Positions 16,395 through 35,626 of a DNA stretch of 64,000 nt are shown piece by piece. Below the pieces are notes generated by a model that did no database searches, was not told the DNA's origin, and saw only the letters and a list, made by a program, of their open reading frames with translations. The stretch spans positions 1,720,470-1,784,469 of the forward strand of contig CP054187.1 in the NCBI GenBank assembly GCA_015200345.1, read 5' to 3'. This stretch comes from Planctomycetia bacterium. Its GTDB lineage: Bacteria > Planctomycetota > Phycisphaerae > UBA1845 > UTPLA1. Each line of letters begins with the position of its first letter. Position 1 is the stretch's first letter. Position numbers and translations under genes: made by a program.

Positions 16395-17210
16395 CTACCG
16401 TCGCCGACGAATCAGGCCCATCCCGGCCAGTGCCATCAGTGCCAGGGACGCCGGTTCGGGTGCCCAAGTAGCGGCACTGAACGTGCCGCTGCCGGTGAAG
16501 GGTGACGGCAACGTGCCCAGCAGATTGCCCGTGTTGACATCGTATTTATAGAAGTTGGGCTGCGTCGTATTCGGGCCGTCGGTCACGTAGTATGCGATCC
16601 CCGCGTGGACGGCCAAGCCATCAATGTCCGTCTCACCGGCGGGATAGCCGGCTAATTGCGACTGCGTGAACCCCAGATAGTCGATGTGATACAGGCCGGG
16701 CGTGTTCGGACTGGGAGCCGTATCCGAAAGGCCGTAAAGCTTGCCGTCCGTGAGATCGAAATCCAGCCCGCCGAAATCGTAAGCGGACGGATAGACATAG
16801 ACCTGCGAAGCGACCAACGTGCCGGGGTCGATCTCGTAGACCGCCTCGGTCGCGATGTTGCGCGTGCCGTACAGCTTGCCGTTATTGAAGCCCAGCCCGA
16901 CGAAGTTGATGGTCGCCGCATTGAACATCATCGTGCCGACATTGGTTGGCGTCAGCACCGGCCCGAACGGCGACTTGTACAACGTGGACCCGTTGTTCCA
17001 ATAGAGCGTATTCGTCGCCGCGTCGTAAGCCATGCCCCATGGCTTGGCGTCCGGCCCCGTTCCGGAATAGATCGGCGTGGCAACACCCGTCGTCGGGTTC
17101 ACGTTGTAAATCGTGGCGGTGCCCGATTGATCGTTCCCGACGATCAACTGGCCGAGTGCCGGGGTCGCGGCAAAAAGTGCTGCGGAGACAAAAAGCAGAA
17201 CGCATCGCAT
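16395..17210 (-). CDS. PEP-CTERM exported protein with beta-propeller-like body
   Basis: A 271-residue exported protein; the start at 17210 follows GAGGTGG. It has a signal peptide (MRCVLLFVSAALFAATPALG), then a body with repeated short Tyr/Gly/Asp strands (WGMAYDAATNTLYW, GLGFNNGKLYG, GLDFDLTDGKLYGL) that resembles a beta-propeller. The C-terminus is a classic PEP-CTERM sorting signal: PEPASLALMALAGMG followed by RRRR. Such proteins are processed by exosortase and often secreted with exopolysaccharide. It stands between two other minus-strand genes with 233 bases to the next. Confidence 0.85.
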   Translation of the reverse strand: MRCVLLFVSAALFAATPALGQLIVGNDQSGTATIYNVNPTTGVATPIYSGTGPDAKPWGMAYDAATNTLYWNNGSTLYKSPFGPVLTPTNVGTMMFNAATINFVGLGFNNGKLYGTRNIATEAVYEIDPGTLVASQVYVYPSAYDFGGLDFDLTDGKLYGLSDTAPSPNTPGLYHIDYLGFTQSQLAGYPAGETDIDGLAVHAGIAYYVTDGPNTTQPNFYKYDVNTGNLLGTLPSPFTGSGTFSAATWAPEPASLALMALAGMGLIRRRR

Positions 17211-20214: not shown

Positions 20215-21816
20215 TCACCCCAGCCCGACCTCCCGGTTGAACGCTTCGATCCGTGCGTCCCAGCCGGCGGCTTGCTCAAAGGTCTGCGCCCAGAAGTCCG
20301 GATCCCACAGGCGGCGCAGCTCGTCGACGCCGCGTTGCTGCTGCTCAACCCAGGTGAAGTATTTGAAGTTGTGCAGCGCCTTGCGGTCTTGATACCCCAG
20401 CTCGCGCAGGTGATCGACGCCGATTCCTTCGAGATAGCGCGCGAAATGCCGCCCCGCGAGCGACTCCGAATACGCCCCGTGCAAGGAACGTTGCTCCGCG
20501 ATGCGCGAGGCGTACAGCTCCATCGAATCAGTCAGGGGGATGAACAACACGTCGCGCCCGTCCATCTCGTAAAGCTTTGCCGTCTTGATCGCCGCGACGA
20601 GGTTGCACAGGCTCGAGATGCCAATGTCCGGCAGGCGGTCGACCACGCCGCGCGAAACGCCGGCCTGCTCGAGCGTTCGGCGGCCGGCGTCCTCGTTGAA
20701 CAGCCGCATCAGCGCCAGGCACTGCTCGTCGTCGATGGCGGCGACCAGGTCGGTGTTGCGCACGTTGTGAATCCAGGGGATGTGCTTGTCGCCGATGCCT
20801 TCAATGCGATGATCGCCGAAACCACAGGCCAGCAGCGTGGGGCATTGAAGCGCCTCGACGGCGACGACGCGAACCTGCGGCGCGATGGTGCGAAGATAGT
20901 CGCCGGCGGCGATCGTGCCCGCGCTGCCGGTCGCGGAGATGTAACCGGCGAGGCGATAGGGAGCTGCGGTGCGGATAGGAGCCGCGGGCTTCAGCCCGCG
21001 CGGCGCATCGAGGGCCAGTGCCGCTTGAGAATCCGCGCGGGCTGAAGCCCGCGGCTCATTGATTGGCTCCTTGATTGGCTCCTTGATTGGCTCCTTGATT
21101 GGCGGCGCGGCGTGCAACTGCCGAAAGATTTCCTCCACGATCGACCCCGTGACGTGATAATGCCACGCCGCGTTGCCAAACTCCTCGAACTGGTTGAAGA
21201 TCACGCAATCCGGCCGCGTCCGGCGGATCTCCCAGCACTTGTCGTAAATCTCCTTCACGTTGCTCTCGCAGCCCGGCGTCGCGATCACCTCGGCCCCGAT
21301 CGATCGCAGCCACTCGAACCGCTCGCGCGACATGCCCTCCGGCAGAATCGCCACGGCCGTGCAGCCCAGCAGCGCGCAGTCGTACGCCCCGCCGCGGCAG
21401 TAGTTGCCCGTGCTCGGCCAGACGGCCTTCTGCGCCGTCGGGTCAAACTGACCAGTGACAAGCCGTGGCACGAGGCAGCCGAAGGCCGCGCCGACTTTGT
21501 GCGCGCCGGTCGGGAAGTGCTTTCCAACAATGCCGATGATGCGCGCGGGCACGCCGGTGAGGGCGGGCGGGAACTCGATCCAGTTTCCGTTGTTGAAGCC
21601 GCCGCCGCGGGCGACCGGTTCGTTCTTCCACGTGATGCGAAACAAGTTGGCGGGATCGACGTCCCACAGGCCGACGTTCTGGAGGCGGTCTTTGATGCGT
21701 TGTGGAACGAGCGACGGGTCCTTCTGCTGCGCGAAGGTGGGGATGATGATGTTGCGCTCACGGCAAAGGGCGATGGCGTTTTGGAGGGCAGACTCGGGTG
21801 AAACCTTTGTACTCAC
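20215..21816 (-). CDS. Fold-type-II PLP-dependent enzyme of purine-cluster type, with repeat insertion
   Basis: A 533-residue PLP enzyme. A GTG at 21816 with GGAG seven bases upstream fixes the start. The cofactor lysine is probably in PTGAHKVG (about 87-94), and the phosphate-binding loop in TGSAGTIAAGD; WPSTGNYCRGG and NQFEEFGNAAWH are strongly patterned. The family is usually annotated only as a pyridoxal-5-phosphate-dependent protein beta subunit and is related to tryptophan-synthase-beta/threonine-synthase-like lyases. Between about residues 235 and 275 lies low-complexity sequence (four KEP/NEP units, then RASARA and RGLKPAAP) encoded by repeats, an insertion absent from the fold. It is divergent from a second PLP enzyme at 21940. 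The substrate is unknown; an amino-acid-like product of purine breakdown is inferred from context. Confidence 0.75.
   Translation of the reverse strand: MSTKVSPESALQNAIALCRERNIIIPTFAQQKDPSLVPQRIKDRLQNVGLWDVDPANLFRITWKNEPVARGGGFNNGNWIEFPPALTGVPARIIGIVGKHFPTGAHKVGAAFGCLVPRLVTGQFDPTAQKAVWPSTGNYCRGGAYDCALLGCTAVAILPEGMSRERFEWLRSIGAEVIATPGCESNVKEIYDKCWEIRRTRPDCVIFNQFEEFGNAAWHYHVTGSIVEEIFRQLHAAPPIKEPIKEPIKEPINEPRASARADSQAALALDAPRGLKPAAPIRTAAPYRLAGYISATGSAGTIAAGDYLRTIAPQVRVVAVEALQCPTLLACGFGDHRIEGIGDKHIPWIHNVRNTDLVAAIDDEQCLALMRLFNEDAGRRTLEQAGVSRGVVDRLPDIGISSLCNLVAAIKTAKLYEMDGRDVLFIPLTDSMELYASRIAEQRSLHGAYSESLAGRHFARYLEGIGVDHLRELGYQDRKALHNFKYFTWVEQQQRGVDELRRLWDPDFWAQTFEQAAGWDARIEAFNREVGLG
20979..21057. 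repeat. Family A palindromic repeat, facing pair inside a PLP enzyme gene
   Basis: Copy 1 (20979-21004) and inverted copy 2 (21033-21057) share the palindromic core gcgggcttcagcccgc and flanking gagccgc / gcggctc. They enclose 28 bases. On the coding (minus) strand they add the residues EPRASARA and PRGLKPAA in frame. Confidence 0.9.
21058..21106. repeat. 12-bp tandem repeat, four copies, in the coding sequence
   Basis: ttgattggctcc is repeated four times, the last copy partial. It encodes four successive (I)KEP/NEP units on the minus strand, directly beside the family A pair. The unit length is a multiple of three, so copy-number change would keep the frame. Confidence 0.9.
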
Positions 21817-21939
21817 AATGATGCTCCGATTGAATGCTCGTCGCAGCACCCAGTCTATCCGCTTTGTCATCCAAACCCAACGCAGGCATCGCGGTATAAT
21901 TCGGCCGACTGTACCAGACAGCCCGTTCGAGGATCGCAC

Positions 21940-23220
21940 GTGAGCCTTGTGACCCTATTGAAGTGCGTCGCCTGCGGGAAGGAATTCCCGCCTGCCGCCG
22001 GCTGGACCTGCCCCACCTGCGGACCGGACGAAGGCATCCTCGACGTGCAATACGATATGCCGCGTGTCCGGCAAACGCTGACCCGCGCGGCGCTGTCCAT
22101 CCGGCCGCTGTCGCACTGGCGATACGCCGAGTTGCTGCCGATCGACGTGCCGCCGCCCGCGGGGATCGAGCACATCGGCTGGACGCCGCTGATCGAGGCG
22201 CCGCGCCTGGCCGCGGCCCTGGGCATCGAACGATTGCGGCTGAAGGACGACGGCCGCAGCGCGTCGGCCTCGTTCAAGGATCGCGCCAGCAGCATCGGCG
22301 TCGCCCATGCCATTGAAATGCACCGTGGCACCGGCGTCTCGCCGGTGGAGATCGCCTGCGCGTCGACCGGTAACGCTGCCAGCAGTCTGGCATATTGCGC
22401 GGCCGCCGCGGGACTGGGCTGCAACATCTTCGTGCCGCGGACCGTGCCCGAGGGCAAGCTCGCGCAATTGCTCGCCTATGGCGCTCGCGTGTTCAAAGTC
22501 ATGGGCAGCTATGCCGAAGCGTACGATCTGTGCACGCACGCCTGCGCCCGGTTCGGCTGGTACAACCGCAATTGTGCGGTGAACCCCTATCTGGTCGAGG
22601 GCAAAAAGACCGGCGGGCTGGAAGTCGCCGAGCAGTGCGCCGACGATCCGCCGGAGTGGGTGGCCGTCAGCATCGGCGACGGCTGCACGATCTCCGGAAT
22701 ATACAAGGGTCTGCGTCAGTCGCGCGAGGCCGGCATCATCTCCTGGAACGCGCGGATGCTGGGCGTGCAGTCGGAGGGCGTCGCGCCGATCGCGAACCTG
22801 TGGCAGCGACGGAACGCCGGCGAATGGCTGGAGAAGCTGACCGGCCGTGATCTGCATTCGCGCGACACGACCTATGCCGACAGCATCAACTGCCCCGTGC
22901 CGCGCAACTGGCGCAAGGCGCTGGCCGCCCTGCGCGACAGCGACGGCGCGTGCGTCGCCGTCACCGACGAACAAATCATGGAGGCCGTGCGTACAGCGGG
23001 CAGGCTGTCGGGCGTCTTCGCCGAACCGGCGGCGGCGGCGGCGGTCGCGGGCATCGCCCAGGCCCGGCGCGACGGCATTCTCACCGAGCGGTCAAACGTC
23101 GTCGCCATGATCACCGGCAACGGATTGAAGGACACGGCGGGCGCGCTGCGGGCCGTCGGCAAGCCGCATGAAGTGCCGCCGGACGTCGGCGAAGTGGAGC
23201 GAATCATACGCCAGGAGTGA
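21940..23220 (+). CDS. Threonine synthase-like PLP-dependent enzyme with N-terminal zinc ribbon
   Basis: A 426-residue fold-type-II PLP enzyme that starts at a GTG with a GAGG site upstream. The N-terminal CVAC (9-12) and CPTC (about 23-26) form a rubredoxin-like knuckle typical of one threonine synthase subgroup. The PLP lysine is in SASFKDRAS (about 110-118), and the phosphate-binding glycine loop is in ASTGNAASS. MITGNGLKD near the end is conserved in threonine synthases. Its neighbours belong to purine breakdown rather than threonine synthesis, so beta-replacement or deamination of a purine-derived amino acid is plausible. A family B palindrome inserts RGTGVSPVE in frame at about residues 130-138. 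Confidence 0.78.
   Translation: MSLVTLLKCVACGKEFPPAAGWTCPTCGPDEGILDVQYDMPRVRQTLTRAALSIRPLSHWRYAELLPIDVPPPAGIEHIGWTPLIEAPRLAAALGIERLRLKDDGRSASASFKDRASSIGVAHAIEMHRGTGVSPVEIACASTGNAASSLAYCAAAAGLGCNIFVPRTVPEGKLAQLLAYGARVFKVMGSYAEAYDLCTHACARFGWYNRNCAVNPYLVEGKKTGGLEVAEQCADDPPEWVAVSIGDGCTISGIYKGLRQSREAGIISWNARMLGVQSEGVAPIANLWQRRNAGEWLEKLTGRDLHSRDTTYADSINCPVPRNWRKALAALRDSDGACVAVTDEQIMEAVRTAGRLSGVFAEPAAAAAVAGIAQARRDGILTERSNVVAMITGNGLKDTAGALRAVGKPHEVPPDVGEVERIIRQE
22326..22348. repeat. Family B palindromic repeat inside the threonine synthase-like gene
   Basis: caccggc (22329-22335), loop gtctc and gccggtg (22341-22347) form a hairpin. It encodes GTGVSPV on the + strand between a helix and the ASTGN loop. 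A facing-pair version lies at 32362-32411. Confidence 0.6.
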
Positions 23221-23251
23221 TTGGAGAATGAAGAATTGAGAAGGCCGGCGT

Positions 23252-23360
23252 GGTTTCAGGACTCCTCTCCCCCTGAAGGAGAAGTCGGGTGAAGGGGACG
23301 AGCGGTCTTAGCGAAGCAGCTTACCCCCATCCCGGCCCTCTCCCTGGAAGGGAGAGGGTG
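23252..23360. repeat. REP/MITE-like palindromic element (family R, copy 2)
   Basis: ggtttcaggactcctctccc on the left and ggccctctccctggaaggga on the right repeat the organisation of copy 1 at 13277-13393, with a central region of about 25 bases that differs. It is intergenic, between the threonine synthase-like gene and the SsnA gene. No promoter or terminator was identified in the remaining sequence. Confidence 0.75.
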
Positions 23361-23414
23361 ACGCCTGCCCTCGTCAATCTTAATTCTTAATTCGACATTC
23401 TACAATCAGTGACC

Positions 23415-24734
23415 ATGTCCACCATTCTCACCAACGCCATTCTCTGTGATCTCGACCCGCCGCGCGTTCAACACGGCGCGCTGCGCATCGAGGACGGCCT
23501 CATCACCCATCGCGGTAAATCCGTTCCGACTGGCCGCGAAGATGAAGTAATTGATCTTGGCGGCGCGGTGGTGATGCCCGGACTGGTCAACGGCCACACG
23601 CACCTGTACTCGGCGCTGGCGGTCGGCATGCCCCCGCCGCCGAAGTCGCCGCGAAATTTCCTGCAAATCCTCAAGTACGTCTGGTGGCGGCTGGATCAGG
23701 CACTGGACGACGAGTCGATTGAGATGTCAGCGCGCATCGGCGCGCTGGAGGCCCTGCGCTGCGGCACGACGACGCTCATCGACCATCACGCCTCGCCCCG
23801 CGCCATCGACGGCTCGCTGGATCGGATCGAAGCCGGCCTTCACGCTGTCGGCCTTCGCGGCGTGCTTTGTTATGAAGTCACCGATCGTCACGGGCGCGCG
23901 GGACGCGAAGCGGGGCTGGCGGAGAACGCCCGATATATCGATAAATGTCGAGAACATGGGCACGGTCGATACGCCGGACTGGTCGGCGCGCACGCCTGTT
24001 TCACCCTCGGCGACGACGCCCTGCAACGCCTCGCCGAGCTCTCACAAAAAACGCGTTGCGGCGTGCACATTCACGTCGCAGAAGACCCCTGCGACGAAGC
24101 GGTCTGCCGCCGCAAGCACCGTCAATCACTCATCGCCCGACTCGACGACTACGGTCTGCTCCACGAGCGATCCCTCTTCGCGCACGGCACACATCTGGAC
24201 GCCGCGGCGACCAAACGCATCCGCGCCGCAAAGGTCACGATGGCCCACAACGCCCGCTCGAACATGAACAACGCCGTCGGCTATGCTCCCGTCGCCGATT
24301 TCGGCCCGCGCGTCATGCTCGGAACCGACGGCATCGGCGCGAACATGCTCGGCGAGGCCCGGGCCGCGTGGTTCATCGCGCGACATCAGAAATCGCGTCT
24401 CTCCCCCGCCGACCTTCTGAATATGCTCGCTCACAGTGCCCGCCGTGCGTCGGCCTCGCTCGGCGTCACCCTCGGCAAGCTGCAACCCGGCGCGGCCGCG
24501 GACGTCATCCTCACCAACTATCGCCCGTTCACGCCGATCGACGCCGACAACCTCGCCGGGCATCTGCTCTTCGCCATCGGTCCGCAACACGTCGAATCGG
24601 TCCTCATCGACGGCCGCTGGAAACTCCGTGGCGGCACGGTGCGGGAGTGCGACGAAGTCGGCATGCGCGAAGCGGCTGTAGGAATCGCGAAACGGCTGTG
24701 GGAACGGATGGCGGGTCGCCTCGCCGAGGGCTGA
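23415..24734 (+). CDS. ssnA: SsnA-like aminohydrolase (amidohydrolase superfamily)
   Basis: A 439-residue amidohydrolase (a GTG six bases upstream would add two residues). The metal-binding motif is NGHTHLYSAL (about 61-70), and later ligands are in VHIHVAEDPCDEAV and ALFAHGTHLD-like LFAHGTHLD. ARSNMNNAVGYAP and LGTDGIGANM complete the active site. SsnA proteins occur in gene clusters with ygfK and selenium-dependent xanthine dehydrogenase, and are thought to deaminate or open a purine-derived ring. It is flanked by a PLP enzyme and a MocA-like gene, which fits that setting. Confidence 0.85.
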   Translation: MSTILTNAILCDLDPPRVQHGALRIEDGLITHRGKSVPTGREDEVIDLGGAVVMPGLVNGHTHLYSALAVGMPPPPKSPRNFLQILKYVWWRLDQALDDESIEMSARIGALEALRCGTTTLIDHHASPRAIDGSLDRIEAGLHAVGLRGVLCYEVTDRHGRAGREAGLAENARYIDKCREHGHGRYAGLVGAHACFTLGDDALQRLAELSQKTRCGVHIHVAEDPCDEAVCRRKHRQSLIARLDDYGLLHERSLFAHGTHLDAAATKRIRAAKVTMAHNARSNMNNAVGYAPVADFGPRVMLGTDGIGANMLGEARAAWFIARHQKSRLSPADLLNMLAHSARRASASLGVTLGKLQPGAAADVILTNYRPFTPIDADNLAGHLLFAIGPQHVESVLIDGRWKLRGGTVRECDEVGMREAAVGIAKRLWERMAGRLAEG

Positions 24735-24736
24735 TC

Positions 24737-24830
24737 AGCGCGCCGTGGGCTTCGGCTCGCACGCCGCTGATGCACGAAAGAACGCCTTTCTTGGCTTCGA
24801 ACGACCGCGCGGTCTGAAGCCCGCGGCTCG
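24737..24830. repeat. Degenerate family A pair downstream of ssnA
   Basis: A worn left copy (gcgccgtgggcttcggctcgc, near 24739-24760) faces a better right copy (ccgcgcggtctgaagcccgc, 24805-24824, then ggctcg). The spacing resembles the other pairs. It lies between the convergent ssnA and MocA-like genes. Confidence 0.6.
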
Positions 24831-24842
24831 CTGGTCGTGAAA

Positions 24843-25511
24843 CTACTCGTTCGTCGGAAGATCCCCCGGTTCGTCCGCATCGCGCAACACGGCGTCGGTC
24901 GGCAATTCCACAAGCTGCATGCGGTCGGCGAATTCTCGCGTCAGCGCATTCAATCCGCCGTCGCACGCTGGCGACATCACGAAAGGAATCAACTCGGCCG
25001 GGAGAATGATCGGATGCCCGCGACGGCCGCCGTGCGACGCGATGATGATCGACCCCCGGTCGTTGGCGGACGCCTTCGCGCTGCCCGCTCCCGACACGCG
25101 CGAAACATCCGCGCGATACGCGCCGACACACGCTGCGAAAACCGCGGTCGTCAGCCCGGGATAATCGCCGGGACAGACGAGAATGCCATCGCGCGGCGCG
25201 ATGTCTTCCCGTTCGCGGCAGGCACGCAACCCCACGCGAATCGAATCGATCATCTCCGATGATTCATCCTCGTTGAACACAACGCGGATCTTGCCGTTCG
25301 ACAATTCATCATTCGACGCGCCCAGCGCGTCGATGATCGCGCAGCGCGTCACGATCATGACATCCGCGATGCCCTCAACCGCCGCCATCGTCTCCGCCAG
25401 TCGCCACAGCATCGGCCGGCCGCCCACGTCGATCAATTGCTTGGGCCGCCCCATGCGGCGCGACCAACCCGCGGCGGGAATGATGGCAACGATTCGCGGC
25501 GTCTCACTCAT
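24843..25511 (-). CDS. MocA-like molybdenum cofactor nucleotidyltransferase
   Basis: A 222-residue GT-A fold nucleotidyltransferase. The signature PAAGWSRRMGRPKQLIDVGG (about 11-30) matches the MocA/MobA nucleotide-binding loop, and VCPGDYPGLT matches the metal-binding D of the family (usually GDMP). MocA-type enzymes add CMP to molybdopterin for xanthine-dehydrogenase-type enzymes; YgfJ-like relatives accompany selenium-dependent purine clusters. It overlaps the upstream ygfK-like stop by 8 bases, so the two genes are coupled. It probably supplies the cofactor of the two molybdenum hydroxylases nearby. Confidence 0.82.
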   Translation of the reverse strand: MSETPRIVAIIPAAGWSRRMGRPKQLIDVGGRPMLWRLAETMAAVEGIADVMIVTRCAIIDALGASNDELSNGKIRVVFNEDESSEMIDSIRVGLRACREREDIAPRDGILVCPGDYPGLTTAVFAACVGAYRADVSRVSGAGSAKASANDRGSIIIASHGGRRGHPIILPAELIPFVMSPACDGGLNALTREFADRMQLVELPTDAVLRDADEPGDLPTNE

Positions 25512-27618
25512 GCACGTTCACCTGATTCACGCGAGACGAATCCAGCACACCCGCCATCAGGTGCCGCATCGTGTGATACGCCCACAGATCCAGCGTGTGT
25601 TCGCCCTCCAACGGTGAGTGCGCGTGCAACGCCTTGAGCGCATGCGTCGCGCCGTCAAACTCCGCAACGACCACGCCGTCATCCAGCACCAGGTGGCCAT
25701 CCACCGCCATCAGTCGAAACACGCGGCCCTTGATCCGCCCGCGAATCCACGGCCCCTGCGCCGATCGCCCGATGACAAACCCGTCGCGCGGGGCAGCCTG
25801 CTCCCACGAGCGCTCGGTGCCGAAGAACGTCGGCTTCTTGATGTACGGCCCGCCGTACTCGGGGCAGAACGTGTCGCAATTACCGCATTCGTTGCAAAAG
25901 TCGCTGTAGCAGGCGATCTGCATCGACTCGGTGATTTCGAAGCGCCGCGATTCGCCGGCGCGGGACGTGAGCGTGTTGCTTCGCGCGTCACCATTAATCG
26001 GTGACACGATGATGTCGTGATAATCGAAGGCCACTTGGGGCGTGGGGTAGGTGAAATTCGCCGCGTTCGGGCAGACGGGCAAGCACTTGTCGCAGGTGAT
26101 GCAGTCGAACGTCTCCAGGTGCGAGTCGATGCGCTTGGGGACTTTGCGATTGTTCTCGGCGCGATAGCGCGGGTCGTTGCGGGCCTGCTCCGCAGCGAGA
26201 GTGGTGTTGTTCAATTCAGCTCGCTTCACTTCTTCCAACGAGCCGCGAGCTTCAGCTCGCGCGGCGTTTGTGCGTCGAGCGAACGACTCTTCCGCGATCG
26301 AATGGCCACGCGGGCTGAAGCCCGCGGCTCGTTGCGGCGACGAGCGGTTCGCATCGGCGCGATCCGACGCGCTTCGCTTGATGATGTAGTCATTCATCGT
26401 CGCCGCGCCGAGTTTTCGCATCTCCGCCGAGAGGCGATCGAGATACGCCGGCATCCGACCATAGCCACCAGGGCGAAGCAGATCCGTGCTGGTCGTAATG
26501 GGCACGAACCCGCACGCGACGGCCGACGGAAAGTTCTGCGCGTCGATCCCCGCGCTGAAGGAGATGGGAAACTCCGCACCCATCGCCCGGCGAAATTCGT
26601 CCGTGAGTGTCATCGTAATGACATGAAGCGGCTGGCCCGACAGATACATCACCTTGTTGTCCGGCGTGAAGAAATCGCGGTGGTTGAGCACCTCCAGCGT
26701 GTTGCTGAATTTCGCGCCGAACGTCCGCCCGCGCGCCGCCGCGAAGCCCGACAGCCGCCGGCAAAGCTGCACGCCTTCGTCAAACCCCAGCCCGGTGCGA
26801 TAGGCCTCGGGGTTCACGGTCAATTCCGTGTAGCCCAGCACGTCGTGCAGCAAATGCTCCAGCCGCTCCTTGCCGAGCATCGGCGGGTTCATCTTCACGA
26901 TCACGTTGAAATCGTACTCGCCCATCAGAAACTCGCAGATGCGCTCGATCTCGTCCGCCGGGCAGCCGTGAAACGTCGAGAGCGTGATGCCATCGCTGAT
27001 GCGCGCGGGGTATTTCAAGTCGCGCGCGGCGGTGAATTCCGCCGGAATCTCGGCGCGAAGCTTTTCCACCATCGGCCGCGCGTCGATCATCGCATCGAGA
27101 AACCCGCGCACCGCGTCGCCGCGTATGCCCGCGAGGTCGTAGCCGACGCTCAAGTCATACACCACGTCGCCCGCCGGACCGCGATTGCCTGCCGGCCCGT
27201 CCGGGTGCGCAGATCGAAACATATCAATCAACATCGCCCCGGCCACGTACTCCCGAATCGATTCGGCGATGCGCAGCTCCTGCGACCACTCGATGTTGTA
27301 GCCCACGTTGGTCACGTCGATGCAGGGGCGGCCGATCGTGAGCCGGTCATTCACCTGCACCGTCTTGAGTTCGAGGATGCGCCCGCCGGCGGCGTAGCTC
27401 AACAGGATGTTCTGCGCCATCTGCGTGTGCGGCCCGGCGGCAGGGCCGAGCGGATTGCCGGCGCGATGCCCGTGAAACGCGACCGACAAATCCGGCCCGT
27501 CGTCCGCCGGCGCGTACCAGCGATTGCGCGGCAGTTCGAACAGCGCGCCCTGCCGCGACGGTTCGAGGTACAACCGTCTTACAAGGTCCGCAAACGGCGC
27601 TGGAACCAGCTCGGCCAT
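25504..27618 (-). CDS. ygfK: YgfK-like oxidoreductase (putative selenate reductase/purine-cluster subunit), short form
   Basis: A 704-residue flavo/iron-sulfur protein. Residues 1-400 form a dihydroorotate dehydrogenase-like barrel (AAGPHTQMAQN, LELKTVQVNDR, FHGCPADEIE). Two ferredoxin-like cysteine sets follow: CITCDKCLPVCPNAA (about 513-527) and CNECGNCDTFCPEYG (about 582-596). YgfK of E. coli is about 1030 residues and also carries a GltD-like FAD/NAD(P)-binding domain; this protein appears to lack it. At about 430-470, just before the first cluster, two family A repeats add low-complexity sequence (RGHSIAE..NAARAEARG). YgfK is associated with reductive steps in anaerobic purine breakdown. 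It is divergent from the xdhD gene, with 116 bases between. Confidence 0.85.
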   Translation of the reverse strand: MAELVPAPFADLVRRLYLEPSRQGALFELPRNRWYAPADDGPDLSVAFHGHRAGNPLGPAAGPHTQMAQNILLSYAAGGRILELKTVQVNDRLTIGRPCIDVTNVGYNIEWSQELRIAESIREYVAGAMLIDMFRSAHPDGPAGNRGPAGDVVYDLSVGYDLAGIRGDAVRGFLDAMIDARPMVEKLRAEIPAEFTAARDLKYPARISDGITLSTFHGCPADEIERICEFLMGEYDFNVIVKMNPPMLGKERLEHLLHDVLGYTELTVNPEAYRTGLGFDEGVQLCRRLSGFAAARGRTFGAKFSNTLEVLNHRDFFTPDNKVMYLSGQPLHVITMTLTDEFRRAMGAEFPISFSAGIDAQNFPSAVACGFVPITTSTDLLRPGGYGRMPAYLDRLSAEMRKLGAATMNDYIIKRSASDRADANRSSPQRAAGFSPRGHSIAEESFARRTNAARAEARGSLEEVKRAELNNTTLAAEQARNDPRYRAENNRKVPKRIDSHLETFDCITCDKCLPVCPNAANFTYPTPQVAFDYHDIIVSPINGDARSNTLTSRAGESRRFEITESMQIACYSDFCNECGNCDTFCPEYGGPYIKKPTFFGTERSWEQAAPRDGFVIGRSAQGPWIRGRIKGRVFRLMAVDGHLVLDDGVVVAEFDGATHALKALHAHSPLEGEHTLDLWAYHTMRHLMAGVLDSSRVNQVNVHE
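26240..26330. repeat. Family A palindromic repeat pair inside the ygfK-like gene
   Basis: Facing copies at 26240-26265 (with gcgagcttcagctcgc as a compensated core variant) and 26306-26330 (gcgggctgaagcccgc) enclose 40 bases. They are in frame on the coding minus strand. The left copy has paired changes in both arms, which keeps the hairpin. Confidence 0.9.
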
Positions 27619-27734
27619 GTTGTCATTGTACCGTCGGTTCCTTACCGCGCGCCGATTTTTGTCCCAAACATCGGCATGTCGGACCGGACTTGCTGTTCCA
27701 CGCTCGGCAGCTAATCACGTATAATCAAGGCACC

Positions 27735-30452
27735 ATGTCCGCACCGGCTCATGCATCCTCAACCGTATCCTTCACGCTGAACGGCCAACCCGTCTCCACG
27801 CCGCATGGCGACCGCAGCCTGCTCGATGTGCTGCGCGAGGATTTCGACATCATCTCGCCGAAGAACGGCTGCCAGCCGATGGGGCAGTGCGGCTGCTGCA
27901 CGATTCTGATCGACGGCAAGCCGCGGTTGAGCTGCACGATCAAGGCGTCCGTGGCCGCCGGCAAGAAGGTGACGACGCTCGAAGGCCTGCCCGAGCCAAC
28001 GCGCCAGCAGATCGCCGACTGCTTCGTTCACGCCGGCGCGGTGCAGTGCGGCTTCTGCATCCCCGGCATCGCCATGCGAGCGCATGCCCTGTGCGAGAAG
28101 AACCCCGCGCCGACGCACGATCAAATCACCGGCGATCTGCGAGCGCACCTGTGCCGCTGCACGGGCTACACCAAGATCGTCGACGCCATCGATCTGCTCG
28201 CGCGCGTCCGCGGCGGCGAGCCGATGCCGTCCAACGGCTGCGCCGGCAAGGTCGGCGAGCGCCTGCACCGTTACACCGGTCACGACGCCGCCCTCGGCAT
28301 GCGCCGCTACATCGACGACATCAAGGTGCCCGGCATGGTCTTCGCCGCGCCGCGGTTGAGCGATCATCCCCGCGCGCTGGTGAAGAAAATCAATACCGCG
28401 CCGGCGATGGCGGTGCCCGGCGTGCTGCGCGTCGTCACGGCGGCCGACGTACCGGGCGACCGCTTCGTCGGCCTGATCACGCCGGACTGGCCCGTCTTCA
28501 TCGCCGAAGGCGAGGAAACGCGCTACGTTGGCGACGTGCTGGCGTTTGTCGTGGCGGCGGACGTTCACGCGGCACGGTACGCGGCGGATCAGATCGAGAT
28601 CGAATACGACGTCCGCACGCCGGTGACGACGCCGGACGACGCGCTGAAACCGGATGCGCCGAAGATTCACCCCGGCGGCAATTTGCTTTCCAGATCGGCG
28701 CTTGTTCGCGGTGAACCCGATGCGGTGCTGGCCGCTTCCGCCCACGTCGTCGAGAACGTCTGGCAGACCCAGTGCATCGAGCACCTGTATCTCGAACCCG
28801 AGGCGGCCATCGCCATTCCCGAAGGGGATGGATTGAAATTGCTCACCCAGGGCCAGGGCATTTTCGACGATCGTCGTCAGACGGCGAAGGTGCTCGGCTG
28901 GCCGATCGAGCGCGTCCGCGCCGAGCTGGTCTCCAACGGCGGGGCCTTCGGCGGCAAGGAAGACATGAGCGTGCAGGCGCAGACCGCGCTGTGCGCGGTG
29001 CTGGTGAACAAACCCGTCAAGTGCGTGCTCACGCGCGAGCAGAGTCTGCGATTGCACCCCAAGCGCCACCCGGTGCGCATCTCGCTGAAGGTCGGCTGCG
29101 ATGCCGAGGGCAAACTGACCGCCGCGCGCGTGCGCATCATTGGTGACAAGGGCGCGTATGCATCCGTCGGCGCGAAGGTGCTGGAGCGCGCCGCGGGCCA
29201 CGCCATCGGTCCATACAAATGCGACAACATCGACATCGAGTCGCTGGCGGTCTATACGAACAATCCCCCGAACGGAGCCATGCGCGGCTTCGGCGCGAAT
29301 CAGGCGGCCTACGCCATCGAAGGCGCGCTCGACATGCTCGCCGCGAAAGTCGGCATCGACGGGTGGGAAATCCGCTGGCGAAACATCCTGCGACCCGGTG
29401 ATCGCTTCTGCACCGGTCAGCGGCTGACCAAGCCGTTCGGGCTGGAGCAGACGCTGCTCGCCGTGCGCGACGCTTATCGCGCCGAGAAATTCGCCGGCAT
29501 CGCCTGCGGCATCAAGAACGTCGGCATCGGCAACGGCCTGCCCGAGATCGGCTGTGCGAGTCTGACCGTCGAAGCCGACGGGTCGATCACGATCCGAACC
29601 GGCCACACTGAAATGGGACAGGGTCTGTTCACCATCGCCATTCAGACCGCCGTGCAGGAGACGGGCCTGCCGCACGAGATTTTCACCGCCCGATGCGACA
29701 CGTCCGACCCCAACGACAGCGGCCAGACGACCGGCAGCCGCGGCACGGTGCTGACCTGTCACGCGGTCATCGACGCGTGCAAGAAATTAAACGCCGATTT
29801 GAAGGAACTTCATCTGCCGCCTGCCGATTCTTCACGTGCGAATGCGAACCAGCCGCAAGCGCGCTCCAACGAGCCGCATTCCAACGAGCCGCGGGCTTCA
29901 GCCCGCGCGGCGATGCCAGCGCTCATGAAGCTCGCCGGCCGAAAATACCTCGGCCGCTGGGAGTGCTACAAAACCGACAAGTTCGGCGCGGACGTGCCCG
30001 AGCCGAAGACGCACCTCACCTACGGATTCGCGACGCAAGTCTGTATTCTCGACGAGACCGGGCGAATTAAGAAGTTCATCGCCGCCCACGATGTCGGCCG
30101 CGTGATGAACCCGACGCTGCTGGAAGGCCAGCTCGAAGGCTCGATCCACATGGGCCTGGGCTACGCGCTCACGGAGGAGATGGTCTACGACGGCGGCCGA
30201 CTTGTGACGGATGACGTGAAATCCTGCGGTGTGCTGCGCGCGCATCACATGCCGCCGATCGAAATAATTCTCGTCGAAGTGCCCGACCCGGATTGCCCCT
30301 ACGGCGCACGCGGCGTCGCCGAGATCGGCCTTGTCCCCACGGCCCCCTCCGTGGCCGGCGCGCTGGCGAAGTTCGAGGGCTTCCATCGCACGACGCTGCC
30401 GATGAAGGATTCTCCGGCGGCGAAGGCCATCCTCGGCCCGCGCGCCGGTTGA
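27735..30452 (+). CDS. xdhD: XdhD-type (selenium-dependent xanthine dehydrogenase family) molybdenum hydroxylase
   Basis: A 905-residue fusion of a 2Fe-2S domain and a molybdopterin-binding domain, the layout of E. coli XdhD. The first cluster is CQPMGQCGCC plus C (about 47-70); the second is QCGFCIPG and CRCTGY (about 108-150). The Mo domain begins near residue 180; GGAFGGKED and AMRGFGANQAAYAIE bind cofactor and substrate, MGQGLFT follows, and the catalytic Glu is in GARGVAEIGL near the end. No FAD domain is present. The selenium requirement (labile sulfido/selenido ligand, not selenocysteine) is inferred from the family. A family A repeat near residue 715 adds SNEPRASARA in frame. Confidence 0.88.
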   Translation: MSAPAHASSTVSFTLNGQPVSTPHGDRSLLDVLREDFDIISPKNGCQPMGQCGCCTILIDGKPRLSCTIKASVAAGKKVTTLEGLPEPTRQQIADCFVHAGAVQCGFCIPGIAMRAHALCEKNPAPTHDQITGDLRAHLCRCTGYTKIVDAIDLLARVRGGEPMPSNGCAGKVGERLHRYTGHDAALGMRRYIDDIKVPGMVFAAPRLSDHPRALVKKINTAPAMAVPGVLRVVTAADVPGDRFVGLITPDWPVFIAEGEETRYVGDVLAFVVAADVHAARYAADQIEIEYDVRTPVTTPDDALKPDAPKIHPGGNLLSRSALVRGEPDAVLAASAHVVENVWQTQCIEHLYLEPEAAIAIPEGDGLKLLTQGQGIFDDRRQTAKVLGWPIERVRAELVSNGGAFGGKEDMSVQAQTALCAVLVNKPVKCVLTREQSLRLHPKRHPVRISLKVGCDAEGKLTAARVRIIGDKGAYASVGAKVLERAAGHAIGPYKCDNIDIESLAVYTNNPPNGAMRGFGANQAAYAIEGALDMLAAKVGIDGWEIRWRNILRPGDRFCTGQRLTKPFGLEQTLLAVRDAYRAEKFAGIACGIKNVGIGNGLPEIGCASLTVEADGSITIRTGHTEMGQGLFTIAIQTAVQETGLPHEIFTARCDTSDPNDSGQTTGSRGTVLTCHAVIDACKKLNADLKELHLPPADSSRANANQPQARSNEPHSNEPRASARAAMPALMKLAGRKYLGRWECYKTDKFGADVPEPKTHLTYGFATQVCILDETGRIKKFIAAHDVGRVMNPTLLEGQLEGSIHMGLGYALTEEMVYDGGRLVTDDVKSCGVLRAHHMPPIEIILVEVPDPDCPYGARGVAEIGLVPTAPSVAGALAKFEGFHRTTLPMKDSPAAKAILGPRAG
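29865..29911. repeat. Family A palindromic repeat inside xdhD, with duplicated 13-mer
   Basis: One full copy (29886-29911, core gcgggcttcagcccgc) is preceded by a duplicated tccaacgagccgc (29865-29877 and 29880-29892). It encodes SNEPHSNEPRASARAA in frame. No facing copy is seen downstream. Confidence 0.85.
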
Positions 30453-30479
30453 TTTTAATTAACGAATGTTCGTTGACCA

Positions 30480-30513
30480 AAGCCCGGGGCCCGCTTGGCG
30501 GGGCCCTTGGAAA
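30480..30513. terminator. Possible hairpin after xdhD
   Basis: ggggcccgc and gcggggccc form a 9-bp stem with one mismatch and a ttg loop. There is no T run on the + strand, so its activity as an intrinsic terminator is doubtful. The 135 bases between xdhD and the next start also contain the short palindrome aacgaatgttcgtt (30462-30475). Confidence 0.35.
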
Positions 30514-30587
30514 TGTACTCACTTTCCTAACCACTCAAATCGCTGTCGAGGGCGCATTCTGAAATTGCCTCGGCGTACAATGATTGC

Positions 30588-31607
30588 ATGAGCGAACTTG
30601 CACCCGTGCTGGATGCCCTGCTTGCCGACCTCGACGCCGGCCGGCCGGTCGCGCTTTGCACCGTCCTGCGCACGCGCGGGAGCACGCCGCAGGCGCCGGG
30701 CGCGACGATGCTCGTCCGCGCCGATGGCAAAACGCTCGGCACGCTCGGCGGCGGATGCGTCGAGGCCGAGGTTCGCAAACGCGCCTTTGAAATGCTCCGC
30801 GCCAATCAAAGCGGCATGCTCGATTTCACGCTCGATCACGATTACGGCTGGGACGACGGCCTCATCTGCGGCGGGCGGATGTTCATCGGTGTCATGCCGA
30901 TGTCGCGCGAGAACGACGCCGCCCCATACCGCGCCGCACTCGCCGCCACGCGCGCACGACAACCGGCTGCGTTTCCCATCGTCATTGACGCCGCGCCGTC
31001 CGGAGGCGGCACCAGCGGAATCGCCGGCGCCAATTCGCAGGACCGGCCCGGTGTGAACGCCGCATCCGTCGCGCCACGGCGCGAGCGGTACACCGTGCAT
31101 CTGGAGGTGCCGCCGACGCTGCTGATCGCCGGAGCCGGGCACGTCGGACGAGCGCTGGCCACGCTGGCCGTCGATCTGGATTTTCACGTCGTCGTCATCG
31201 ACGACCGTGCCGACTACGCCTCGCGCGAGCGCTTCGACGGCCGCGTTGAACTGGTCGTGGGCGACATCGCCGCCGCGTTGCGCGGCCGTGCGATTGATGC
31301 CGGTTGCTACGTTGTGATCGTCACGCGCGGCCATCAGAATGACGAGAAAGCGCTGGACGCCGTCATTCGCTCACCCGCGGGTTACATCGGCCTGATCGGC
31401 AGCCGGCGCAAGAGCCGGTTGATTCTCGACGATTTGCGCGCGGCCGGCGTGCCCGATGATTTGCTCGCGCGCGTGCACACGCCGATCGGCCTGCCGATCA
31501 ACGCGGTGACGGTTCCGGAAATCGCGATCAGCATCGCGGCGCAACTCGTGCAGGTCCGGCGAAGCCAGTTGCCGGTGCTGGTCGAGGGCCCGATACACAC
31601 ACCATGA
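30588..31607 (+). CDS. XdhC/CoxI-family molybdenum hydroxylase maturation protein
   Basis: A 339-residue protein with the two usual domains: XdhC/CoxI N-terminal (VALCTVLRTRGSTPQAPGA, then GTLGGGCVEAEV, about 20-65) and a C-terminal Rossmann domain (LLIAGAGHVGRALA, about 174-187, then VIDDRADYA). XdhC proteins bind molybdenum cofactor, promote insertion of the terminal sulfur and pass the cofactor to xanthine dehydrogenase. The gene follows xdhD by 135 bases on the same strand and likely serves both molybdenum hydroxylases of the island. A YqeB-like selenium-insertion role is possible, but the domain order fits XdhC better. Confidence 0.85.
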   Translation: MSELAPVLDALLADLDAGRPVALCTVLRTRGSTPQAPGATMLVRADGKTLGTLGGGCVEAEVRKRAFEMLRANQSGMLDFTLDHDYGWDDGLICGGRMFIGVMPMSRENDAAPYRAALAATRARQPAAFPIVIDAAPSGGGTSGIAGANSQDRPGVNAASVAPRRERYTVHLEVPPTLLIAGAGHVGRALATLAVDLDFHVVVIDDRADYASRERFDGRVELVVGDIAAALRGRAIDAGCYVVIVTRGHQNDEKALDAVIRSPAGYIGLIGSRRKSRLILDDLRAAGVPDDLLARVHTPIGLPINAVTVPEIAISIAAQLVQVRRSQLPVLVEGPIHTP

Positions 31608-31626
31608 TCCGCGCGTCGCCCCCAAC

Positions 31627-31717
31627 GAGCCGCGGGCTTCAGCCCGCGCGGCAATCAACACGTGAACGAACCGTTCGCAAGACAGATCAGCGCCGCGCGG
31701 GCTGAAGCCCGCGGCTC
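31627..31717. repeat. Family A palindromic repeat pair, intergenic
   Basis: Facing copies at 31627-31652 and 31692-31717 enclose 39 bases. They fill most of the 118-base gap between the convergent XdhC and FAD-subunit genes, and might also act as a bidirectional stem-loop there. Confidence 0.9.
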
Positions 31718-31725
31718 ATTGATTC

Positions 31726-32631
31726 CTACGCGCATTCGGCCAATCGGAAAAAGATCAACCTCGCCAGCACGCGGCGACGATAGGCGGCGGTGGAGCGCAT
31801 ATCGTCAATCGGCGAAATATCGGCGGTGAGCAGCGATTCGATATCTGGAGGACCAGTAAACGTGCGGCCCGCGTCCAGCGAAGCCTCCAGCGCGCGACAG
31901 CGCACCACCGTCGGCGCGACGCTGTTGGCGACCACACGCCAACCATTGGCGCCGTGCGAAAGGGCCACGCCGACCTTCGTAATCGCCTGTGCCCGCCGCG
32001 CGCCGACTTTGTGAAACCACTGCACGTCCCACGCCGGCGGCGGCAAGCGAATCGCGACGATCAATTCATCCGCCGCGCGCACACTTGTGCGGTATCCGGT
32101 GTAGAACTCGTCCAGCCGCACCTCGCGCCGGCCGCGCACCGATGCCAGCACCACCCTCGCGTCGTACGCCATCAACACCGGCACACCGTCGGCCGCCGGC
32201 GAGCCGTTGCCGATGTTGCCCGCCCACGTGCCGCGCGTCTGAATCTGAACCGCGCCGACCTGCCGCGCCGCCTCGCCGAGCAAGGGATACGCCGCCGCCG
32301 CCTCGCGCGACTGCATCACATCCCAGTACGTCGTCAGCCCGCCGAGTTCGAGCCATGGGGAGGCACCGGCGTCTCGCCGCAGATCGAAGGACGGGACGCC
32401 CATGCCACCGGACCCCTGGTCAAAGCAGCCGCCTACGACGTTCCAATTCATCACCGCCAGCTCCCGCACGCGCGACAGGTCCAGCAGTGTGAGGCCGTTC
32501 TTCTCGCGATGATGCCACGACACCATCACATCCGTGCCGCCCGCGATCGGCGTCACCACCTCCCGGCGTCCTGCCGACTCCGCCAGCATCGCCAGCGCCT
32601 CGTCCAATCCTCGCGGCGAGAGAACTTTCAC
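31726..32631 (-). CDS. FAD-binding subunit of a three-subunit molybdenum hydroxylase (CoxM/YgfM-like)
   Basis: A 301-residue flavoprotein. The start is the GTG at 32631, which overlaps the upstream TGA as GTGA and directly precedes the conserved VKVLSPRGLDEALAML. FAD-binding motifs are PIAGGTDVMVSW (about 33-44) and TWAGNIGNGSPAADGVP (about 133-149). The subunit moves electrons from the 2Fe-2S centres to an acceptor. At about residues 70-90 the sequence MGVPSFDLRRDAGASP comes from a family B repeat (32362-32411) that enlarges a loop. It is the last gene of a three-gene operon. Confidence 0.85.
   Translation of the reverse strand: MKVLSPRGLDEALAMLAESAGRREVVTPIAGGTDVMVSWHHREKNGLTLLDLSRVRELAVMNWNVVGGCFDQGSGGMGVPSFDLRRDAGASPWLELGGLTTYWDVMQSREAAAAYPLLGEAARQVGAVQIQTRGTWAGNIGNGSPAADGVPVLMAYDARVVLASVRGRREVRLDEFYTGYRTSVRAADELIVAIRLPPPAWDVQWFHKVGARRAQAITKVGVALSHGANGWRVVANSVAPTVVRCRALEASLDAGRTFTGPPDIESLLTADISPIDDMRSTAAYRRRVLARLIFFRLAECA
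32362..32411. repeat. Family B palindromic repeat pair inside the FAD-subunit gene
   Basis: ggcaccggcgtctcgccg (32362-32379) faces gggacgcccatgccaccgg (32393-32411) around 13 bases. Both halves are in frame on the minus strand. The left half matches the repeat at 22326-22348. Confidence 0.6.
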
Positions 32632-33167
32632 GGTCTCGCCTCCCCGCGCAGGCGCAGCGCTGCCTCGGCCCCCGCCACGATGCCGTCGTACCCCGTGCAG
32701 CGGCACAGGTTGCCGCTCAAGAACTCCCGCAGATCGACATTCGACGCAATCTCCGGCCGCTCCAGCAACCAGCGAATGCTCATCACGATTCCCGGCGTGC
32801 ACGCGCCGCACTGTGACGTCCCTGTGGCATTCAGCGCGCTCGCCACGTCCGCCGACACGCTCTCCACCGTTGTCACGGCTCGTCCCGCCGCCTGAAACGC
32901 CGGCACGAGGCACGAATTCACCAGCAGCCCGTCCAGGATGACGCTGCACGCGCCGCACTCCCCTTCGCCGCAGCCTTCCTTCGTCCCGGGGCAGGCGCAG
33001 TCGTACCGCAACACGTCGAGCAACCGGGCATCCAGCGCCACGCGACGCGAAACCGGCGCGCCGTTCAGCGTGAACGCGAGTTCGAACGTCTCAACGTCGC
33101 CGCCGTTGGTGGGCAGGACGCCCTTCAAAGGCGGGCCGTCTGGCGTGTCGTGCGTCGCCATCGTCAC
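32628..33167 (-). CDS. 2Fe-2S subunit of a three-subunit molybdenum hydroxylase (CoxS-like)
   Basis: A 179-residue ferredoxin-type subunit. The plant-type cluster is CGEGECGACS plus a later Cys (about 66-90), and the second cluster is QCGACTPG with CRCTGYDG (about 118-160), as in all xanthine dehydrogenase small subunits. A GTG start at 33167 overlaps the upstream stop (GTGA); an ATG at 33161 with GGAGG nine bases upstream is equally possible. It couples on both sides to the Mo and FAD subunit genes. It relays electrons between the molybdenum site and FAD. Confidence 0.9.
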   Translation of the reverse strand: MTMATHDTPDGPPLKGVLPTNGGDVETFELAFTLNGAPVSRRVALDARLLDVLRYDCACPGTKEGCGEGECGACSVILDGLLVNSCLVPAFQAAGRAVTTVESVSADVASALNATGTSQCGACTPGIVMSIRWLLERPEIASNVDLREFLSGNLCRCTGYDGIVAGAEAALRLRGEARP

Positions 33168-35410: not shown

Positions 35411-35626
35411 GGACCGCTCACCCTGCCTGGCAGTCCGGACGCTCGCGGACGCGTATCGCCGAAGCTGCCGCTGAACAAGAACCACGCCCGATCCGTTGGA
35501 AAGTATACCGATCCGCGCGGCCTGACGCGATGACAAAGGCCCGCGACCACGATGAACCGTGCGCCCTGCGAGGTAGCCGACTGCCGCATCCGATGGATAG
35601 AATAACCAACCTTGAGGAGATCGCTT

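What the first reader, a model, noticed from the sequence alone, without database searches (positions are those of the whole stretch)
25504..27618. YgfK without the GltD-like FAD/NAD(P) domain
The protein keeps the barrel and both cysteine clusters but is about 330 residues shorter than E. coli YgfK, and the missing part corresponds to the pyridine nucleotide-disulfide oxidoreductase domain. The family A repeats lie in the linker before the first cluster, close to where homologues may differ. Loss of the NAD(P) domain would force electrons to come from or go to a separate partner.
Basis: partly seen in the sequence, partly recalled or inferred. Interest (0 to 1): 0.5.

Follow-up and report, generated by a model that had tools for sequence, protein, structure and literature searches.

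The report
Short YgfK carrying in-frame mobile palindrome
The enzyme is an ordinary short form of a purine-breakdown reductase, but a mobile DNA hairpin has inserted into its gene without breaking the reading frame, and the transposase gene most likely responsible sits, also in frame, inside an essential purine-synthesis gene of the same genome.

Summary
In detail: 704 aa against 1032 in E. coli; DHOD/DPD-type barrel and both Cys4 clusters present; GltD-like block absent; repeats just before the first cluster. "Domain lost" does not hold: short is the usual form (21 of 28 YgfK-bearing genomes of the phylum sample; 80 of 80 best loci elsewhere), and short and long forms lie on two sides of one tree branch (support 80). 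No free gltD lies nearby (0 of 49 well-covered loci). Best reading: a yanthine-type reductase fed by an external one-electron donor.

The unusual part is the repeat, a REPIN-like doublet inserted in frame into a disordered loop; the sister species lacks it. The genome holds 50 exact arms. Of 71 arms read, 37 lie in 20 Pfam-validated ORFs (ileS, proS, purL, AldDH and others). The only REP-flanked RAYT lies stop-free inside the only purH, with dN/dS 0.14 against the sister. Nine of 37 genomes of the order have a RAYT-like insert at the same PurH site; others sit in AlaS, ValS, LeuS. Counter-example: two REPINs shift the frame of valS.

The parts
25504..27618 (-). short YgfK-like protein, 704 aa: DHOD/DPD-type barrel plus two Cys4 clusters, no GltD-like FAD/NAD(P) block
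26185..27498 (-). barrel, about aa 41-478 (invariant H217 G218 C219 P220, K242, N244, K303, N306 as candidate FMN/substrate residues; roles inferred)
26234..26337 (.). REPIN-like element: two inverted REP arms (26236-26265 and 26305-26334), read in frame; loop aa about 429-455 predicted disordered; folds as one long ssDNA hairpin, z -5.15
26071..26103 (-). cluster 1, C506 C509 C512 C516
25864..25896 (-). cluster 2, C575 C578 C581 C585
24843..25511 (-). MocA-like NTP transferase (under the curated NCBIfam cut-offs, over Pfam's); its ORF start lies 8 bp inside the ygfK ORF end
23409..24734 (+). SsnA-like amidohydrolase, predicted partner that opens the reduced purine ring
   Evidence: PRK07203 407.8 bits, under its cut-off 444
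27690..30452 (+). selenium-dependent XDH type (TIGR03311 928.4 bits, over cut-off 830.45), 2Fe-2S plus Mo domains without FAD domain match; carries a REP arm in frame at 29886-29907 that the sister species shares
20979..21057 (.). REP doublet in frame in a PLP-enzyme (cysK-like) gene, ORF 20215-21939 (-); shared with sister species
24808..24829 (-). REP arm between ssnA-like and mocA-like genes
31627..31717 (.). REP doublet between the XdhC-like gene (ends 31607) and the xdhB-like ORF (ends 31726)
21940..23220 (+). threonine-synthase-like PLP enzyme of the conserved island
30588..31607 (+). XdhC-like maturation factor
31726..32958 (-). XdhB-like FAD subunit of a second XDH
33164..35536 (-). 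XdhA-like Mo subunit of a second XDH

Best explanation
The gene encodes a normal short-form YgfK: an FMN barrel of the dihydropyrimidine/dihydroorotate dehydrogenase kind plus two [4Fe-4S] clusters. It most likely reduces a dioxopurine (yanthine, made from urate by the XDH-type neighbour) so that SsnA can open the ring, with electrons entering through the clusters from an external donor such as reduced ferredoxin, as proposed in print for the FAD-less UacX of C. difficile. Into one surface loop a REPIN (inverted pair of REP hairpins) has inserted without shifting the frame, adding about 40 residues, of which 27 are predicted disordered; this is a recent change (the sister species lacks it) and probably close to neutral for the enzyme. 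The REPINs of this genome are most likely spread by the one RAYT (HUH/Y1) transposase that their arms flank; that transposase is itself carried as a stop-free, in-frame passenger inside PurH. Shown here: architecture, insertion, frame, copy number, arm flanking, conservation between two species, same-site inserts in relatives. Inferred: FMN and cluster loading, substrate, ferredoxin as donor, mobilisation by the PurH-borne RAYT, neutrality of the loop.
For: Short form general. Fold. Island with XDH and ssnA; of 49 loci with at least 12 kb, xdh in 22, ssnA in 24. E. coli YgfK with SsnA and NAD(P)H reduces and opens yanthine, and UacX lacks the FAD domain with Fdx suggested (PMC12507026, abstract, passages and Discussion). 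POR domains (2-oxoacid:ferredoxin oxidoreductase type) in the genome: 3 (weak, as 11 of 14 control genomes have them too). Insertion; disordered loop; dN/dS window against sister: barrel 0.13, linker 0.67, clusters and tail 0.20. REPIN family: (one stem pair is G-C in 56 and A-T in 11 of 71 arms). In-frame insertion elsewhere: IleS (5 of 5 sites), AldDH, CoaBC and ProS inserts fall on or directly beside gaps against solved structures. RAYT between REP arms in PurH; only purH match in the genome; dN/dS RAYT core 0.14, PurH C-part 0.12. Of 21 genomes the three richest in the exact REP (50, 27, 14 copies) are the three with a close (44% identity or more) relative of this RAYT.
Against: The protein fails the NCBIfam YgfK equivalog cut-off (358.6 against 835.3 bits), so identity of substrate with E. 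coli YgfK is not shown. A lone GltD-like ORF with no ORF over 526 aa in the 12 kb read around it exists elsewhere in the genome, so a trans NAD(P)H partner is not excluded. L097 has a long and a short YgfK side by side, so the two may do different jobs. 13 of 49 loci have none of the pathway-type neighbours looked for. In valS two REPINs shift the reading frame, so insertions are not always in frame, or the assembly has indels at hairpins. 34 of 71 arms are not in a validated gene, and 2 of the 37 that are lie at a valS frame-shift site. The sister's ygfK linker differs throughout, so the exact empty site cannot be shown there. The REP stretches that flank the PurH RAYT are not conserved like it (dN/dS 0.49 and 1.64 over 28 and 45 codons). 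Transposition itself was not observed; target duplications were not sought.
Confidence: 0.72

Rival explanations
1. A separate GltD-like subunit encoded elsewhere in the genome supplies NAD(P)H electrons, as PreT does for PreA (PreT/PreA recalled, not tested).
For: One GltD-like ORF (526 aa open frame, 30% identity to the E. coli YgfK GltD block) at C1:1143990; no ORF of GltB size in the 12 kb read around it.
Against: About 600 kb away; 0 of 49 loci with at least 12 kb held have a free gltD near short ygfK.
Confidence: 0.2
2. The XDH-type neighbour hands electrons directly to YgfK (both lack a FAD domain), making the pair one redox unit.
For: Neighbour XDH has 2Fe-2S and Mo domains but no FAD domain match; xdh next to short ygfK in 22 of 49 loci.
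Against: In the published pathway both enzymes reduce their substrates (PMC12507026), so one cannot feed the other unless XDH runs oxidatively; 27 of 49 loci show no xdh within the DNA held.
Confidence: 0.15
3. The REP arms in genes are spread by recombination or gene conversion or by another transposase, and the PurH RAYT is only a passenger.
For: No transposition was observed; other Y1_Tnp matches exist in the genome (4 in all).
Against: The other three Y1_Tnp matches lie more than 60 kb from any exact REP arm (positions); the three REP-rich genomes of 21 are those with a close relative of this RAYT.
Confidence: 0.2
4. The insertion inactivates YgfK and the gene is decaying.
For: Linker diverges fast (dN/dS 0.67).
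Against: Frame intact, barrel dN/dS 0.13, clusters and tail 0.20, invariant and cluster residues kept, insert in a disordered loop.
Confidence: 0.05

Closest known systems
E. coli YgfK (yanthine reductase of the reductive uric acid pathway, PMC12507026)
   Same: homologous barrel and C-terminal Cys4 pair, next to SsnA and XDH-type genes
   Different: E. coli protein has a GltD-like FAD/NAD(P) block of about 450 aa between barrel and cluster pair; window protein has a short loop with a REPIN there
UacX of Clostridioides difficile / clostridial PydA (PMC12507026, passages)
   Same: dearomatising FMN enzyme without FAD/NAD(P) domain; ferredoxin suggested as donor
   Different: a different, PydA-like family in that paper; not compared by sequence here
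Dihydropyrimidine dehydrogenase (1gt8) and dihydroorotate dehydrogenases
   Same: barrel fold, Z 25-27
   Different: 13-18% identity; DPD carries its own GltD-like half (recalled)
Rickettsia palindromic elements (PMC10969869, passages) and intragenic REPs of O. terrae, Thauera and others (PMC3733652, passages)
   Same: palindromic elements inserted in frame in genes of known proteins, including doublets and tRNA synthetases
   Different: repeat sequences not compared; the passages seen report no transposase gene carried in frame in a housekeeping gene
RAYT / TnpA-REP, class 3 TnpA-Y1 of Planctomycetes and Acidobacteria (PMC6006769, section on class 3 and passages)
   Same: HUH motif NHVH, W-T, hairpins on both sides, many REP-like copies
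   Different: no own stop codon, read as part of PurH; Y motif YVCEQ is one residue shorter than the printed class 3 pattern; that study discarded unexpectedly long proteins as fusions or annotation errors

Membership tests
TIGR03315 YgfK equivalog (NCBIfam) | score at least 835.3 bits over the 1012-position model | tested here: not met
   358.6 bits, best stretch model 5-397
YgfK superfamily, short form | DHOD/DPD-type barrel with HGCP and two C-terminal Cys4 clusters | tested here: met
YgfK, long form | GltD-like FAD/NAD(P) block between barrel and cluster pair | tested here: not met
   no such block in the 704 aa
Reductive uric acid pathway (yanthine reductase) | genetic link to SsnA and an XDH-type enzyme | tested here: met
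   ssnA-like 23409-24734 and Se-XDH 27690-30452
Reductive uric acid pathway (yanthine reductase) | reduction of yanthine with SsnA | not testable with these tools
   -
REPIN | two REPs in inverted orientation folding as one hairpin | tested here: met
REPIN | dispersed, many copies, with a RAYT flanked by the same REP | tested here: met
   50 exact arms; RAYT between arms in purH
GTAG REP superfamily (PMC3733652) | GTAG-type tetranucleotide at one end of the hairpin | tested here: not met
   consensus CAAC before GAGCC
REP | extragenic location | tested here: not met
   37 of 71 arms in 20 Pfam-validated ORFs
class 3 TnpA-Y1 (PMC6006769) | NHVH, W[TA] and YV[VI][AENY]EQ motifs | tested here: inconclusive
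   NHVH and WT present; Y motif reads YVCEQ
class 3 TnpA-Y1 (PMC6006769) | CnGA foot of flanking hairpins | tested here: inconclusive
   consensus CAACGAG; no strict CnGA
Rickettsia palindromic elements | palindromic element inserted in frame in protein-coding genes | tested here: met
   exception valS
Rickettsia palindromic elements | sequence of an RPE family | not tested
   -

The most novel reading that the evidence does not exclude
In this planctomycete order a REP/RAYT system has taken to living inside proteins: transposases of two lineages have entered the same loop of the essential enzyme PurH (and loops of AlaS, ValS, LeuS) as stop-free in-frame domains kept under purifying selection, and their non-autonomous REPINs insert in frame in loops of enzymes, YgfK among them. 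It would be a mobile-element lifestyle parallel to inteins but without splicing.
Probability: 0.5. Interest if true: 0.85.

Novelty: new variant of a known kind. Interest (0 to 1): 0.62.

Why it matters
For the enzyme: the short YgfK, not the E. coli form, is the form to characterise if one wants to know how most of the lineages sampled here would run this step, and what donor it uses. For the repeat: in-frame palindromes are known from Rickettsia and from some REP families, but a transposase carried as a conserved in-frame domain of a housekeeping enzyme would tie element survival to host survival, protect it from deletion, and make 'how do bacterial transposases become domesticated' directly testable in one locus (PurH) with inserted and empty relatives.

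Tried and rejected
Recent domain loss in the window lineage: rejected. Separate gltD next to short ygfK: 0 of 49 well-covered loci; L097 first looked like one but is a full long YgfK. phmmer of YgfK against PDB sequences: nothing at E 0.01; only the fold search found the relatives. Long linker as such being unusual: rejected, window 84 residues between fixed columns against 41-130 in short homologues, although 15 of the 19 closest loci listed there have 42-54 (the others 64, 64, 70, 82). MAFFT put the window cluster pair onto the GltD N-terminal cysteines of E. coli; I used the motif positions instead. Intein: no splicing-junction signature noticed by eye in the PurH insert; not tested with intein models. 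GltB next to the lone GltD: no ORF of that size within the 12 kb read. A first reading that all REP insertions are in frame was dropped because of valS. Exact empty site in the sister ygfK: not shown, the linker is too diverged. The rows shown by the fold search cover residues 2-481 at most; the C-terminal cluster half was not folded or searched alone. Start codons of its own for the PurH RAYT: in-frame ATG/GTG/TTG codons do occur upstream of the HUH motif in all 9 inserts, so separate translation of the RAYT is not excluded.

Counts left incomplete: of 50 exact REP arms, 8 were not examined (near 1.996, 2.278, 2.365, 2.373, 2.585, 2.629, 3.488 and 3.632 Mb). The gene-bearing ORFs were picked by a GC3 filter before Pfam. 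L226 and L227, the ORFs over L181 and L186 (the latter without a Pfam hit) and over L184's third arm were not assigned to genes. Pfam hosts were read for 8 RAYT-bearing frames of relatives other than PurH (L218-L225). Three of 10 paper searches and 1 of 2 structure jobs were not used; one search showed 20 of 354 papers.
Full report
1. What is at the coordinates. The ORF 25504-27618 (-) is 704 aa with an ATG start and no stop. It hits the NCBIfam YgfK model best over the barrel, 358.6 bits in all against a cut-off of 835.3, and Pfam sees only 4Fe-4S families. In an alignment of 43 short homologues HGCP (217-220), K242, N244, K303 and N306 are invariant, and 7 of the 8 cluster cysteines are (C509 nearly). 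AlphaFold2 on that alignment gives mean pLDDT 86.1, pTM 0.89. The barrel matches pig dihydropyrimidine dehydrogenase 1gt8 (Z 27.2, rmsd 2.6, 292 aligned, 18% identity) and dihydroorotate dehydrogenases at Z 25-27, the best of which are tied with it. E. coli YgfK is 1032 aa, and the difference of 328 is an internal GltD-like block between the barrel and the cluster pair.

2. Is the short form a loss? In a 392-genome sample of the phylum 28 genomes have the gene: 21 short, 5 long (frames 1124-1189 aa, two families), 2 cut by contig ends. In 61 genomes of the window's genus, family and order 23 have it, none with a frame over 877 aa. On a barrel-only tree of 59 sequences (52 short, 7 long) the label needs one change; the branch has support 80 only and the root is unknown. 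So the window lineage did not lose the domain recently; which form came first is open.

3. Partner and pathway. Neighbours are a selenium-dependent-XDH-type enzyme above its curated cut-off (928.4 against 830.45 bits), an SsnA-like amidohydrolase below its own (407.8 against 444), a MocA-like protein, two PLP enzymes and a second XDH. Of 49 homologous loci with at least 12 kb held, 36 have at least one of the pathway-type neighbours looked for, 22 an xdh, 24 an ssnA, 0 a free gltD. Li et al. 2025 (PMC12507026; abstract, passages, Discussion read) report that E. coli YgfK with SsnA and NAD(P)H converts yanthine, and propose ferredoxin for the FAD-less UacX of C. difficile. By analogy the short YgfK most likely takes electrons from ferredoxin; the genome has 3 POR-domain matches, but so have 11 of 14 control genomes. 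It also has one GltD-like ORF about 600 kb away, with no GltB-sized ORF in the 12 kb read, so a trans partner is possible. L097 carries a long and a short YgfK side by side, which warns against assuming the same job.

4. The repeat. The arms 26236-26265 and 26305-26334 are 90% complementary. As ssDNA 26234-26337 folds at -39.5 kcal/mol, z -5.15, 0 of 200 shuffles as good. The unit is CAACGAGCCGCGGGCTTCAGCCCGCGCGGC. The exact 22-mer core occurs 50 times in the genome, 27 in the same-genus genome, 14, 4 and 2 in three others and 0 in 16 of 21 genomes, with 0 for the reversed control in all. One stem pair is G-C in 56 and A-T in 11 of 71 arms. The sister's ygfK has no such repeat and its linker is unalignable, whereas the arms in the neighbouring XDH and PLP-enzyme genes are shared with the sister. 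Residues 429-455 have pLDDT under 50. dN/dS between the species is 0.13 (barrel), 0.67 (linker, 42 codons, poorly aligned) and 0.20 (rest).

5. The same element in other genes. In the window and 27 stretches read around hits there are 71 arms with up to 4 mismatches; 37 lie in 20 ORFs with Pfam domains and 34 do not; with up to 2 mismatches 32 of 62. Hosts include IleS, ValS, PurH, ProS, PurL, a CoaBC-type protein and an aldehyde dehydrogenase; in FlgI, biotin carboxylase, CinA, a DNA methylase and a MATE protein the arms lie near an end of the ORF. Against solved structures the IleS sites (5 of 5, 8c8v; the last target line was cut in the output), the AldDH site (6dbb) and the CoaBC site (1u7u, between a strong and a weak block) fall on gaps; in ProS (5ucm) an 18-residue gap lies directly before the arm, over partial repeats. 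The arms are used in five frame/orientation classes: 12, 9, 8, 6 and 2 arms; the sixth contains TGA and is unused (my reading of the sequence). Against the pattern: in valS one REPIN is in frame, two others shift the frame so that about 250 aa lie in another frame, although an open frame of 1248 aa runs through; the sister valS is one open frame of 1184 aa. Two of the 37 arms are at such a site. An assembly indel at a hairpin is possible.

6. The transposase. Of 4 Y1_Tnp matches in the genome only one lies near REP arms, and it sits between them at 460175-460384 inside an 843-aa ORF whose ends are PurH. PurH aligns to solved PurH (3zzm) on both sides of the insert, and this is the only purH match in the genome. 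Between the two species the RAYT core (169 codons) has dN/dS 0.14, PurH C-part 0.12, N-part 0.34 (which includes codons upstream of the start), the REP flanks 0.49 and 1.64. Of 41 genomes of the order, the window's own included, 37 have PurH (two more matched only by their transposases); 9 of the 37 have 233-355 residues inserted at the same site (coordinates; 15 read in full). Four inserts are related to each other and include the window genome's (43-73% identity), four others form a second group (35-58%), and G423's is RAYT-like by motifs only. Pfam puts Y1_Tnp above its cut-off in 5 of the 9, below in 2, absent in 2. The host tree of 15 PurH needs 6 changes of insert type, and 39 of 200 shuffles are as low, so gains and losses cannot be resolved. 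In a sample of 88 genomes of the phylum, 82 have PurH matches; 69 show one uninterrupted full-length piece; the other 13 are the window's genome and 12 partial or split matches, one of them (G166) with a gap of about 640 bp. Other in-frame hosts: AlaS in G418, G420 (two RAYTs), G399, G406 and G398; ValS in G408 (Y1_Tnp 22.7 bits, just under the cut-off 23) and G410; LeuS in G408. Most of the high-scoring Y1_Tnp matches listed for the order are free-standing frames of about 150-250 aa (list cut), so the in-gene state is one among others.

7. What is known. In-frame palindromes: Rickettsia (PMC10969869, passages), and intragenic GTAG/CGTC REPs in several species, many in repair genes, some in tRNA synthetases (PMC3733652, passages). 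Class 3 TnpA-Y1 in Planctomycetes, and the remark that a few unexpectedly long proteins were discarded as gene fusions or annotation errors (PMC6006769, section 27 and passages). Searches for transposases or palindromes in frame in housekeeping genes listed no paper that I recognised as describing a RAYT in frame in such a gene; the library holds open-licence PMC papers only, I read passages, not whole papers, and one search showed 20 of 354.

8. Verdict. The finding as worded is ordinary (short YgfK, no recent loss). The repeat in it is not: it belongs to an in-frame REP/RAYT population whose transposase lives inside PurH.

Noticed in passing
L174:3003-5531 (+), G000:C1:459002-461530: RAYT/Y1 transposase domain with REP arms on both sides, stop-free inside the only purH match of the genome; same site occupied in 9 of 37 genomes of the order.
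   Followed up: yes
L218, L219, L220, L221, L222, L223, L224, L225: Y1_Tnp domains in frame inside LeuS, ValS and AlaS of order relatives; L220 AlaS holds two.
   Followed up: partly
L172:5578-9300 (-), G000:C1 about 2411.3-2415.3 kb: valS with REPINs, two of which shift the frame; the sister valS is open throughout. True shift or assembly indel.
   Followed up: partly
L173:4936-8724 (-): ileS with six REP arms at five sites, all at gaps or between aligned blocks against solved IleRS.
   Followed up: partly
window 20979-31717: Five of the genome's roughly 40-50 REP loci fall in this 10.7-kb purine island; similar clusters at 2.411-2.414 and 2.950-2.953 Mb. Why they cluster is unexplained.
   Followed up: no
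L097:2968-8845: A long (1218 aa) and a short (705 aa) YgfK side by side with ssnA, ygeW and ygeY in a Thermoanaerobaculia genome.
   Followed up: partly
window 20215-23220: Two PLP enzymes (cysK-like and threonine-synthase-like) are seen near ygfK in 13 and 14 of 49 loci, YgeX in 0 of 49; they may replace diaminopropionate ammonia-lyase.
   Followed up: no
L048 and L150, ygfK linker: Lys/Ser-rich tandem repeat peptide (KSQKVE...) in the same ygfK loop of another family member, perhaps another repeat family in the same spot.
   Followed up: no
window about 14946-15576: Tandem units of roughly 129 bp shared with the sister genome, in the 702-aa ORF 14359-16467 (-).
   Followed up: no
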